From assembly GCA_016000195.1 (NCBI GenBank), contig JAECRO010000009.1:1-64000 (forward strand): 64,000 nucleotides of DNA. Reading direction: 5' to 3'. The position numbers were made by a program, and so were the translations under genes. Below the pieces are notes generated by a model. The model had not been told where the DNA came from, did no database searches, and worked only from the letters and a program-made list of their open reading frames with translations. Positions 36,376 through 61,788 of this stretch are shown piece after piece (position 1 is the first letter of the stretch; each line of letters starts with the position of its first letter). Source of the stretch: Burkholderiales bacterium (GTDB lineage: Bacteria > Pseudomonadota > Gammaproteobacteria > Burkholderiales > Burkholderiaceae_C).

Positions 36376-37293
36376 TTATTCTTGCGACAAATCAGCGCGC
36401 AGCAAGGGCGGCGCGGATTCGGCCAGCGGCGGCAGGTTGCTGCGTCCCGCGCTGCTGCCCTTCATTTCCAGACGCACGCGCCCGGTGGCTGGCGTTTTGA
36501 AGGAGACAGGTGCCAGGCCGTTGTAGAGCTGCATGACGGTTTTCACATAATTCCGGGTTTCGGGATAGTTGGGAATCCTGTTTCCGGCGCGTTGCACGGC
36601 GCCTTCTCCGGCGTTGTAGGCGGCCAGCGCCAGTTCCAGCCGGCCCGGAAACATGTTGATCAGATAGGCCAGATACCGGGCGCCGGCCTTGATGTTGATT
36701 TTTGGGTCGGTCAGTTTTTTCTCAATCGTGGCGCCCTTGCCGGCGGTGACGCCGTAGCGCTCCGCCGTGGGCGGGATCAGCTGCATCAGGCCGACCGCCC
36801 CTTTGGGCGAGACGGCGAAGGTGTTGAAGCCGGACTCGGTGGCAATCAAGGCCTTGAGCAATGAATAGTCGATGCCGTGGGTGGTGGATGCCTCGCGCAG
36901 CAGGGGGCTGACGGCCTTGTAGTTTTCCGAGTGTTCGAAAAAAGCCAGCAGCCTGGGCGAGACCGGACTGATTGCGCTGGCCGCAGCCGGCCCGGCAGGC
37001 TCTGCGGCGGATGACGCTTCGAGCGCGCCCGGCGCATCATCCTGCGCCTTGGCGGGCAGGTCCATCAGCCGATACGGCTCGACACTGTCGCGCAGAAAGA
37101 GTTCATAGCGCTCATCCAGGCGGCTGGAGGCGAAATGCGGCATGCGCTCCGCGTCCACATAACCCCAGATGTCGGCCCTGGCCGGTGTTGCGTGCAAGGC
37201 CAGCAGAACCAGCACCGCCGCGCAGCTACCCATCGCGCGCCAGAACGGCTTGGCAGGGGCGCCTGCTGCGGGCGGTATTGGTTCAGGTTTCAT
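36376..37293 (-). CDS. lytic transglycosylase (SLT domain)
   Basis: 305 residues. A signal peptide or membrane anchor (AVLVLLALHATPARA) precedes a DUF4124-like DIWGYVDAERMPHFASSRLD segment and the SLT domain with catalytic Glu in LIATESGFNTFAVSPKGAVG, LMQLIPPTAERYGV and ALAAYNAGEGAV. The start is the ATG at 37293 (MKPEPIPPAAG), placed by GGAG about ten bases upstream; an in-frame TTG nine bases earlier is less likely. The gene sits between parE and parC on the same strand. Its leader is shared with an unrelated gene near 61.4 kb (see the leader entry). Confidence 0.92.
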   Translation of the reverse strand: MKPEPIPPAAGAPAKPFWRAMGSCAAVLVLLALHATPARADIWGYVDAERMPHFASSRLDERYELFLRDSVEPYRLMDLPAKAQDDAPGALEASSAAEPAGPAAASAISPVSPRLLAFFEHSENYKAVSPLLREASTTHGIDYSLLKALIATESGFNTFAVSPKGAVGLMQLIPPTAERYGVTAGKGATIEKKLTDPKINIKAGARYLAYLINMFPGRLELALAAYNAGEGAVQRAGNRIPNYPETRNYVKTVMQLYNGLAPVSFKTPATGRVRLEMKGSSAGRSNLPPLAESAPPLLRADLSQE

Positions 37294-37408
37294 CAAAAAC
37301 AAACTCCGTTTTGAAACTTCCCCTTTCAGGGGCGATAGGATTTATTTGGGAGAGGGACAGGCTCTTGCAAATTTCGCTCAAGCTGTGCCTGGGCGCGGAT
37401 TGAAACAT
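37283..37408 (-). CDS. possible 41-residue leader peptide between parE and the transglycosylase
   Basis: An uninterrupted frame starts with an ATG overlapping the parE stop (TAATG) and ends eight bases inside the transglycosylase gene. It reads MFQSAPRHSLSEICKSLSLS and ends EFVFDET. The overlapping termini would allow coupled translation of parE, leader and transglycosylase. The corresponding segment at 61.4 kb has an indel that shifts the frame midway, so conservation may be at the RNA rather than protein level. Confidence 0.3.
   Translation of the reverse strand: MFQSAPRHSLSEICKSLSLSQINPIAPERGSFKTEFVFDET
37291..37408 (-). promoter_or_regulatory. leader element, copy 1 (upstream of lytic transglycosylase)
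   Basis: Sequence closely similar to 61351-61461: both begin ATGTTTCAATCC, share GAAATTTG/GCGAATTTG, CCCTCTCCCAAAT, AATCCTATC, a hairpin (here CCCCT-GAA-AGGGG), GTTTCAAA and CGGAGTTTGTTTTTGATGAA, which contains the ribosome-binding site and start codon. The two downstream genes are unrelated. The hairpin is kept in both copies although the base pairs differ in sequence (CCCCT/AGGGG against CCCCC/GGGGG), which hints at a structured RNA. Confidence 0.6.
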
Positions 37409-61230: not shown

Positions 61231-61475
61231 TGGCGAGTTGCCGTAGTCCAAACGGCTCAATCGCTTTTTTGCACAAGGAAAGAGCATCCCGATACATTTT
61301 AAAGCGCCAGCAACAATTCATTGAACGACTCAAACAGGAGATTCAAGATGATGTTTCAATCCACGCCCCTTTCGAGGCGAATTTGGAAGAGGTTACCCCT
61401 CTCCCAAATGAATCCTATCCCCCTGAAGGGGGAGGTTTCAAACCGGAGTTTGTTTTTGATGAAGCAACTGATTAA
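61230..61475 (+). CDS. possible 81-residue upstream reading frame
   Basis: A frame that starts on the DUF455 stop (TGATG) and ends 17 bases inside the next gene, with EFVFDEATD at its end. The same EFVFDE ending occurs in the leader frame upstream of the transglycosylase at 37.3 kb. Its wobble positions are less GC-rich than neighbouring genes, so it may not be translated. Confidence 0.28.
   Translation: MASCRSPNGSIAFLHKERASRYILKRQQQFIERLKQEIQDDVSIHAPFEANLEEVTPLPNESYPPEGGGFKPEFVFDEATD
61351..61461 (+). promoter_or_regulatory. leader element, copy 2 (upstream of coiled-coil gene)
   Basis: Counterpart of 37291-37408 with about 80 percent identity by eye, including TTTCAATCC, CCCCTCTCCCAAAT, AATCCTATC, the hairpin CCCCC-TGAA-GGGGG and CGGAGTTTGTTTTTGATGAA. 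The last bases are the ribosome-binding site and ATG of the gene at 61459. Confidence 0.6.
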
Positions 61476-61788
61476 AAAGGCAAAATTCATGCTTTTTGAA
61501 CCCGATGAAGTCAGCGAGACGGCGGCTCGGCAAGGGATCGGCCAGCAGCGCCCCGCAGATATTCCGGATCAGCCGCTCACGGGCCATTGGATGAGCGCTG
61601 AGCAGCAGCGCATCCAGCTGCTGGAATCCCAGAACCAGCAATTGCGCGCGGACATTGCCGTGCTGAAGAATTTTTCAATCGGTTTTGCCCAGGAGATTCG
61701 AGAGTTGCTGACGGATGTTACGCAACTGGGGTTTTCCACGGGCGCAAGAACGGCCCAGGCCGCCCCGACTCAGGCCGAGCGGAGCTAA
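61459..61788 (+). CDS. small coiled-coil protein
   Basis: 109 residues from MKQLIKKAKFMLFEPDEVSE; GGAG lies ten bases upstream of the ATG, as at the transglycosylase gene. An in-frame ATG ten codons on (MLFEPDEVSET) is an alternative. The middle predicts a coiled coil (SAEQQRIQLLESQNQQLRAD, then IAVLKNFSIGFAQEIRELL). No signal peptide or known domain; function unknown. Confidence 0.7.
   Translation: MKQLIKKAKFMLFEPDEVSETAARQGIGQQRPADIPDQPLTGHWMSAEQQRIQLLESQNQQLRADIAVLKNFSIGFAQEIRELLTDVTQLGFSTGARTAQAAPTQAERS

What the first reader, a model, noticed from the sequence alone, without database searches (positions are those of the whole stretch)
37291..37408. A ~115-nt structured leader is shared by two unrelated genes 24 kb apart
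The stretch from the parE stop to the start codon of the lytic transglycosylase is closely similar to 61351-61461, which leads into an unrelated coiled-coil gene. Both contain CCCTCTCCCAAAT, AATCCTATC, a G/C hairpin and the same CGGAGTTTGTTTTTGATGAA around the start. The hairpin arms differ yet still pair (CCCCT/AGGGG against CCCCC/GGGGG). Neither downstream protein resembles the other, and the reading frame is not conserved across the element, so the unit kept is more likely RNA than peptide. It could be a cis-regulatory RNA, a small-RNA target, or a duplicated leader that moved to a new gene.
Basis: partly seen in the sequence, partly recalled or inferred. Interest (0 to 1): 0.7.

Follow-up and report, generated by a model that had tools for sequence, protein, structure and literature searches.

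The report
Mobile repeat that splits start codons
The shared leader is one of about 20 copies of a tiny mobile DNA element that tends to insert itself at the start signals of genes, bringing its own ribosome-binding site, and distant relatives of it occur in Neisseria.

Summary
They are copies of a mobile element of roughly 100-115 bp that codes for nothing. For 11 of 17 tested copies, relatives have the site without the element. The insertion point is AT|GAA (TTCAT on the other strand), with AT at both junctions. Because of this target the element often splits a native start codon (ATG-AA, or TTC-ATG on the other side). At 37294 it separated the overlapping parE stop and transglycosylase start (TAATG). 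Its right end carries GGAG ten bases before the ATG, so a gene there keeps a ribosome-binding site. Three hairpins are conserved with compensatory changes, but the better-folding strand is the opposite of the leader mRNA in the window copy folded as RNA. A model built from these copies finds Neisseria gonorrhoeae elements (best E=9e-8) with the same junctions, probably the known REP2/CREN repeats. I read it as a non-autonomous, single-strand-transposed element (PATE-like) that is often kept as a leader. The mobilising enzyme was not found, and regulation in this genome is untested.

The parts
37294..37406 (-). Copy 1 of the mobile element (113 bp). The GTTTCAATCC end abuts 37407-37408 (AT); the ...GTTTTTG end abuts 37293-37292 (AT).
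   Evidence: element-free site in three relatives (L213, L214, L219)
37407..37408 (-). AT at the left junction (duplicated target dinucleotide, or shared end of the cleavage sites)
   Evidence: one AT in the element-free alleles
37289..37293 (+). TTCAT target; read on the - strand it is ATGAA, the start of the transglycosylase gene
36376..37293 (-). Downstream gene, SLT-domain lytic transglycosylase, 305 aa. Its ATG overlapped the parE stop (TAATG) before the insertion.
   Evidence: Pfam PF01464
37408..39573 (-). Upstream gene parE, whose stop codon shares its last base with the AT
61353..61458 (+). Copy 2 of the mobile element (106 bp)
   Evidence: in the rows listed no relative spanned this site
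61351..61352 (+). AT at the left junction of copy 2
61459..61463 (+). ATGAA at the right junction of copy 2, start of a 109-aa reading frame
61459..61788 (+).
61364..61379 (+). Hairpin 1, next to the conserved GTTTCAATCC end; CRISPR-repeat-like; GNRA-type loop on the - strand in most short-form copies
61381..61409 (+). Hairpin 2, the central hairpin; the region is 92% identical over 37 nt in Neisseria
61419..61432 (+). Hairpin 3 (CCCCC/GGGGG with a TGAA loop)
61445..61448 (+). GGAG, Shine-Dalgarno-like, 10 nt before the ATG; supplied by the element
   Evidence: read directly

Best explanation
Each 'leader' is a copy of a short non-autonomous mobile element. A transposase supplied in trans, most likely of the single-strand IS200/IS605 (Y1) type, recognises its hairpins and inserts it 3' of TTCAT. 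The inserted strand then reads TTCAT|CAAAAAC...GGATTGAAAC|AT. TTCAT is the reverse complement of ATGAA, so landing sites are often start codons. If the gene reads away from the 'right' end, the gene's own ATG-AA is the target; if it reads away from the 'left' end, its ATG preceded by TTC is the target. The element then lies between the old Shine-Dalgarno sequence and the ATG. At the right end it supplies a new one (GGAG-N10-ATG), so insertion is tolerated, and many copies persist as the gene's leader. Shown here: multiple copies, element-free sites in relatives, the AT junction, the preferred target, start-codon junctions, conserved hairpins, the better-folding strand, and homology to Neisseria elements. 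Inferred: the transposase type, tolerance through the supplied ribosome-binding site, and any regulatory effect.
For: 21 places in the genome. Near-identical copies at unrelated loci: 5 copies at 98-100% in Rhodoferax antarcticus, and 39 matches, some partial, in one MAG. Patchy spread, own genome counted: 5 of 61 genus, 10 of 399 family (7 of 141 genera) and 5 of 369 class genomes (lower bounds, few candidates scored per genome). Element-free sites aligned through the junction at 11 of 17 loci; one AT there in all 20 aligned relative stretches. In right-type loci the relatives have ATGAA in 13 of 16 of those stretches. Of 97 listed copies, 66 have a reading frame of at least 80 aa starting exactly at a junction: 44 of 72 right ATGs against 31% for ordinary ATGAA sites, and 26 of 38 left CATs against 35% for ordinary ATGs in the window. 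In 18 of 31 such proteins scanned, a family profile begins within the first 7 residues, so the start is native: GshB, Der, YifB, PlsX, IspZ, TrpS, NadE, LeuB, SurE, PurU, NrdR and others. TTC directly before the native ATG in relatives of left-type genes: 8 of 39 in register, about 0.6 expected. 14 of 27 pairs with changes on both sides, 0 of 500 shuffles as high. The TTCAT strand folds with z -4.3 to -4.7, the other with -1.6 to -3.1 (three copies). Hairpins lie 26 and 11-13 nt from the ends (counted); Borrelia IS605B has 25 and 9 (PMC2775950 passages).
Against: No transposase with these ends was found: 47 Y1 loci (21, 26) and the 30 TnpB loci fetched showed none within their flanks, and the one IS200/IS605 whose right end I could define ends differently. 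The window's genome has one ordinary IS200-type Y1 gene, three longer Y1/RAYT-like genes and one marginal TnpB match. A 2-bp AT duplication, if that is what it is, is not typical of IS200/IS605, which make none. The central hairpin is conserved across families although such elements need mainly their ends. Start codons preceded by TTC seem commoner than the target alone would give (a rough estimate of mine, no call); my test of selective retention was not significant (Fisher p=0.13). For TrmD, Der and LpxL no relative has TTC before the ATG (0 of 12).
Confidence: 0.72

Rival explanations
1. Cis-regulatory RNA or regulon tag: the leader is kept because a protein, ligand or small RNA binds it and co-regulates the downstream genes, as reported for REP2/CREN in Neisseria.
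For: Hairpins are conserved with covariation. Probable relatives in Neisseria resemble REP2/CREN, said to influence pilC1 and crgA (PMC3898611 passages) and to precede nhba and control pptB as a contact regulon (passages).
Against: Either end of the element, so either strand, can serve as leader; some copies have no gene start at a junction; the genes are unrelated, many of them housekeeping genes; near relatives lack the element at the same genes; the better-folding strand is antisense in the three right-end copies folded as RNA.
Confidence: 0.15
2. Site-specific recombinase element (IS110/bridge-RNA-like or IS607-like serine recombinase) with a 2-bp AT core rather than Y1 single-strand transposition.
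For: AT is present once in element-free alleles and on both sides in filled ones; no terminal inverted repeats; the element is largely a structured, RNA-like sequence, which a bridge RNA would need.
Against: Target is only about 5 bp; hairpins sit just inside both ends. No IS110 or IS607 family search was made.
Confidence: 0.15
3. CRISPR-derived element moved or kept by Cas proteins: the GTTTCAATCC end is a CRISPR repeat.
For: 16 exact bases plus hairpin position and GCGAA shared with a real array of at least 8 repeats in the same MAG; weak CRISPR-DR matches.
Against: Below Rfam thresholds (14.6-23.2 bits against 45); the window's genome has no array with this repeat and its only Cas1 match sits next to a Cas2-3-like protein (type I-F by recall); 5 of 15 element-bearing genomes have no Cas1 match.
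Confidence: 0.04

Closest known systems
REP2 / CREN repeats of pathogenic Neisseria
   Same: Dispersed, about 150 bp, directly before genes; the gonococcal elements share AT|GTTTCAA, the central hairpin, GGTTTCAACC, an AAGGA motif and GATGAA at the gene start, e.g. ftsB and creA. REP2 is listed as 59-154 bp, 26 copies (PMC2267715 passages).
   Different: The Comamonadaceae element is roughly 100-115 bp with short hairpins 1 and 3; in the gonococcal copies these are much longer. Identity of the gonococcal elements with REP2 was not checked by sequence: Morelle 2003 and Parkhill 2000 were not held.
PATEs (palindrome-associated transposable elements) of the IS200/IS605 group
   Same: No terminal inverted repeats, palindromes near both ends, no transposase gene (definition from PMC3119063 passages); insertion next to a fixed 4-5 nt target as in IS200/IS605 (PMC7290912 passages).
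   Different: No parent IS605-type element was found; a conserved central hairpin; frequent start-codon landing.
Betaproteobacterial repeat element (BRE), Hot et al. 2011, PMC3110155
   Same: Dispersed, mostly intergenic repeat reported in Polaromonas JS666 (29) and Rhodoferax ferrireducens (4) (section 14 read; other passages).
   Different: In Bordetella 75-91 bp, 69% GC, partly in tandem arrays; sequence not in the text I saw, so identity could not be tested.
LOOT RNA, Rfam RF03000
   Same: A serial-hairpin layout aligned over the whole model on the - strand of the 61351 copy (19 bits, E=0.17).
   Different: Gathering score 46.4; not in the list for 20 loci, the locus of that same copy included.

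Membership tests
REP2/CREN (Neisseria) | Sequence and structure homology of the element | tested here: inconclusive
   Model R2 finds gonococcal elements full length at E=9e-8 and 3e-7, others at 0.001-0.19; that those are REP2 rests on size, copy number and position, not on a reference sequence.
REP2/CREN (Neisseria) | Lies directly before genes at their start codon | tested here: met
   66 of 97 listed copies, native starts; the rest are not at a start by this test.
REP2/CREN (Neisseria) | Induction of the downstream genes on host-cell contact | not testable with these tools
   Needs expression data.
PATE / non-autonomous IS200-IS605 | No terminal inverted repeats; near-terminal palindromes; too short to code for a transposase | tested here: met
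PATE / non-autonomous IS200-IS605 | Insertion 3' of a fixed 4-5 nt target, no target duplication | tested here: inconclusive
   Target TTCAT supported; AT at both ends could be a 2-bp duplication or a shared end.
PATE / non-autonomous IS200-IS605 | Ends related to a TnpA/TnpB-bearing element | tested here: not met
   None among the 47 Y1 and 30 TnpB loci scanned, which are part of the matches and have limited flanks.
Classical MITE (DDE transposase) | Terminal inverted repeats | tested here: not met
   The ends GTTTCAATCC and CAAAAACAAAC are unrelated.
LOOT RNA (RF03000) | Gathering score 46.4 bits | tested here: not met
   19 bits; absent from the list.
CRISPR repeat | Regularly spaced array | tested here: not met
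   Only scattered single sites in G000, G003, G024 and G042.
BRE (Hot 2011) | Sequence identity | not testable with these tools
   Sequence not in the text seen; supplements not available.

The most novel reading that the evidence does not exclude
The element is a stand-alone guide-RNA transposon. The structured (TTCAT) strand is transcribed into a three-hairpin scaffold ending in GGAUUGAAAC, like a crRNA handle or TnpB omega-RNA, and the host sequence that follows serves as the guide. TTCAT is the target-adjacent motif. A nuclease in trans then cuts the empty allele, and repair copies the element back into the start codon. This would explain why the central hairpin and the CRISPR-like end are the best-kept parts across families, and why copies persist at start codons.
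Probability: 0.08. Interest if true: 0.85.

Novelty: new variant of a known kind. Interest (0 to 1): 0.58.

Why it matters
A mobile element whose 5-bp target makes start codons a usual landing place, and whose one end carries a ribosome-binding site, is a simple way to swap gene leaders across a genome without killing genes. The link to Neisseria would mean that REP2/CREN, studied as a regulatory sequence, belongs to a wider betaproteobacterial transposon family. That would give a testable origin for the CREN regulon and a natural series of filled and empty start codons for measuring what such leaders do.

Tried and rejected
Rfam at gathering level: no match in the window. A solo-Cas1 integrase idea was rejected: the divergent Cas1 in the window's genome sits next to a Cas2-3-like protein (subtype named from recall). 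Y1 transposases as parents: 21 loci and 26 scanned, none with these ends; the IS in G042 ends ...GGGTCA. One Y1-bearing contig of G589 that also holds a related element was read separately, without result. TnpB loci: the 30 fetched of the more than 100 matches listed were scanned, none with these ends. Selective keeping of the left end when a gene starts there: 5 of 9 left-type copies lost the right end against 7 of 27 others, p=0.13, not significant. Guide-sequence matching by the IS608 rule (recalled) gave no clear answer and is not used. Hypothesis that GATGAA belongs to the element: rejected for right-type copies, because relatives without the element have ATGAA there in 13 of 16 stretches. 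Viral contigs (pattern), phages and E. coli (blastn): no match. A pattern with a spacing error found nothing; the corrected pattern is. A first count of junction classes read three loci in the wrong orientation; the corrected count is.

Dropped before counts: L012 (no right end), L017, L020 and L021 were not in the 17-copy composite; the 61351 copy was in it, but no relative in the listed rows spanned its site. In one search one SspB row was out of register and is left out of the 39. The 97 copies include truncated ones and some loci shared by related genomes, so they are not independent.

Full report
What is there. A search of the window's own genome gives 21 places at E<=1e-3, on many contigs and in both orientations; the alignment of these is. 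So this is a dispersed repeat, not a pair.

Spread. Counting the window's own genome, the element is found in 5 of 61 genomes of the genus (one of the five by a weak 28-base match), 10 of 399 of the family, 7 of 141 genera, and 5 of 369 of the class (the class hits outside the family are mostly weaker and some look like related but different elements). Searches scored only about ten candidates per genome, so these are lower bounds. Named carriers are Rhodoferax antarcticus, Simplicispira metamorpha, and Polaromonas, Rhodoferax, Giesbergeria and unclassified MAGs, plus one Acidithiobacillus MAG (22 loci). R. antarcticus has 5 copies that are 98-100% identical at different loci, and one MAG has 39 matches, some of them partial. 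No match in viral contigs, phages or E. coli. This patchiness and recent duplication point to mobility.

Empty sites. I joined the flanks of 17 own copies and searched 40 relatives and the own genome. For 11 of the 17 loci a relative aligns through the junction without the element: 7 in one genome (G024) alone. I aligned 20 relative stretches; all have one AT at the junction where the filled allele has AT on both sides (in the NadC copy the left AT is followed by extra GTTT units). Some alignments have gaps near the junction, the largest 29 bases (for L015). For copy 1 three relatives show the parE stop overlapping the next start (TAATG or TGATG), which the insertion separated. For copy 2 no listed relative spanned the site.

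Target. In right-type loci the relatives read ATGAA at the junction in 13 of 16 stretches (L001 1 of 3, L018 0 of 1, the rest all; NrdR begins MK everywhere, so its 4 say little). So the target is ATGAA, or TTCAT on the strand that folds. On the left side the gene's own ATG follows the element directly. TTC stands before that ATG in 8 of 39 in-register relatives (GlnD 3 of 5, SspB 2 of 2 with a third out of register, RbfA 1 of 9, YaeQ 1 of 10, one gene 1 of 1, TrmD 0 of 4, Der 0 of 7, LpxL 0 of 1), about 0.6 expected by chance; the left-type loci L004 and L015 have it in 1 of 3 and 0 of 1. The support is uneven, and relatives are not independent.

Start codons. Of 97 listed copies, 71 have AT at the left junction and 38 have CAT; 26 of the 38 begin a frame of at least 80 aa. 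72 have ATG at the right junction; 44 of these begin such a frame; 66 of 97 have one on at least one side. Ordinary sites give 31% (ATGAA, window 43 of 137; 450 of 1460 in loci) and 35% (ATG, window 657 of 1895; 30% in loci). The excess gives p about 2e-7 and 2e-5, though copies in related genomes are not independent. I scanned 31 of these proteins against NCBIfam; in 18 a profile begins within the first 7 residues (within the first 10 of the profile), so the start is native: left side cobC-like, GshB, LeuS, Der, YifB, PlsX, MobA, GlnD, LpxL-like, ABC-F, IspZ, TrpS, NadE; right side PurU, LeuB, SurE, EarP, NrdR. In the other 13 there was no match or the profile begins later (for example ParC at 17, NadC at 20, CobT at 15). 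Not all copies are at starts: L011, L003, L017 and L110 have none at either junction, and L002 seems to lie at the end of a gene.

Structure. Three hairpins plus a small one: 27 pairs, 84.7% of cells paired, 14 pairs with changes on both sides (shuffles 6.5, 0 of 500 as high), and sliding the partner by 1-3 columns gives 4-8. The structure was drawn from the consensus, which favours it somewhat. RNAalifold on its own found only 4 pairs on this alignment, a result against strong signal that I put down to alignment gaps. Leaving out one usually mismatched pair, A-C mismatches (G-U on the other strand) occur 96 times and G-U 47 times, p=5e-5 by cells but only 16 to 7 pairs, p=0.09. Folding as RNA gives z -4.65, -4.29, -4.26 for the TTCAT strand and -1.61, -2.26, -3.13 for the leader strand of three right-end copies (in one of them, L097, the best fold pairs hairpin 1 with hairpin 3 instead). 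As DNA the 61351 copy gives -4.47 against -2.89, the 37291 copy only -1.45 against -0.54. So the structured strand is mostly not the leader mRNA in the window.

Function of the ends. The right end carries GGAG ten bases before the ATG (read); the left end has only GTGGATTGAAAC before its ATG, a poor Shine-Dalgarno. That both ends work as leaders is inferred from the genes being intact.

Neisseria. The consensus finds 37 nt at 92% in two N. gonorrhoeae records of 2.17 Mb filed as plasmids. The full element there, between a gene that reads like eno and ftsB, has the same order of parts and 18 places in that record. Model R2, built only from the other copies, finds it at E=9e-8 and a second at 3e-7; three more full-length matches have E 0.001-0.03 (E-values of such models are rough). 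In nine 50-kb stretches (about 450 kb of 2.17 Mb) BLAST gave 7 matches: 3 end at a reading frame with ATGAA next to an AAGGA motif (a sulfatase-domain gene, creA, and a 141-aa frame); the other 4 are truncated or end at no clear start. This looks like REP2/CREN: REP2 59-154 bp, 26 copies (PMC2267715 passages); influence on pilC1 and crgA (PMC3898611 passages); a 150-bp CREN before nhba (PMC9031163 and PMC5079597 passages); pptB in the CREN regulon (PMC8445170 passages). I recalled the link first; Morelle 2003 and Parkhill 2000 were not held.

How it moves. No terminal inverted repeats, hairpins 26 and 11-13 nt from the ends, a preferred target on one side and one better-folding strand fit IS200/IS605-type single-strand transposition, whose features I took from passages of PMC8266576, PMC2775950, PMC3119063 and PMC7290912. 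Against it, no parent was found, and IS200/IS605 make no target duplication, so the second AT must be the element's own end. A recombinase with a 2-bp core remains open and was not searched for.

CRISPR likeness. The left end shares 16 exact bases and the hairpin position with a real CRISPR repeat in one carrier MAG. Rfam matches to CRISPR families are far below threshold, the window's genome has no such array, and 5 of 15 carriers have no Cas1 match. I treat it as unexplained.

Literature. In the listings of searches I saw no paper on an element that inserts at start codons in these bacteria; the listings show only the top of long hit lists and the library is incomplete, so this is not proof of absence. 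BRE (PMC3110155) is the nearest report from related hosts and could be the same or another repeat.

Noticed in passing
L054:4507-5091: A CRISPR array of at least 8 repeats (GTTTCAATCCACGCCCGTCATCACTGACGAGCGAAC) in the MAG contig that also carries an element; its first 16 bases equal the element's left end.
   Followed up: partly
L016, L081, L087, L050, L079, L096: The left end can carry tandem GTTT units (GTTTGTTTC, GTTTGTTTGTTTC) between the AT and the element, as if by slippage.
   Followed up: partly
L048, L057, L079, L082, L085, L078: Internal-deletion derivatives that keep both ends or only the first hairpin.
   Followed up: no
L025, L239, L248, L242, L238: Related but different elements with CTTCAG hairpins and a GGTTTCAAACC...GATGA-like end in other genomes; one ends at a start that reads like coaD (by eye).
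   Followed up: partly
L100 (G000 contig C9:47013 and 48862): Two copies 1.8 kb apart in opposite orientation; what lies between them was not examined.
   Followed up: no
L064: A good copy in an Acidithiobacillus MAG, far from the family; transfer or a mis-binned contig.
   Followed up: no
L235 (G000 contig C22): Cas1 next to a Cas2-3-like protein (type I-F by recall) in the window's genome.
   Followed up: partly
L347, NZ_CP119140.1: Two N. gonorrhoeae records of about 2.17 Mb, by size chromosomes, are filed as plasmids in PLSDB.
   Followed up: no
L155 and L161; L154 and L168; L157 and L165: Divergent copies at what look like the same genes in different genomes, which suggests that some insertions are old and inherited.
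   Followed up: no
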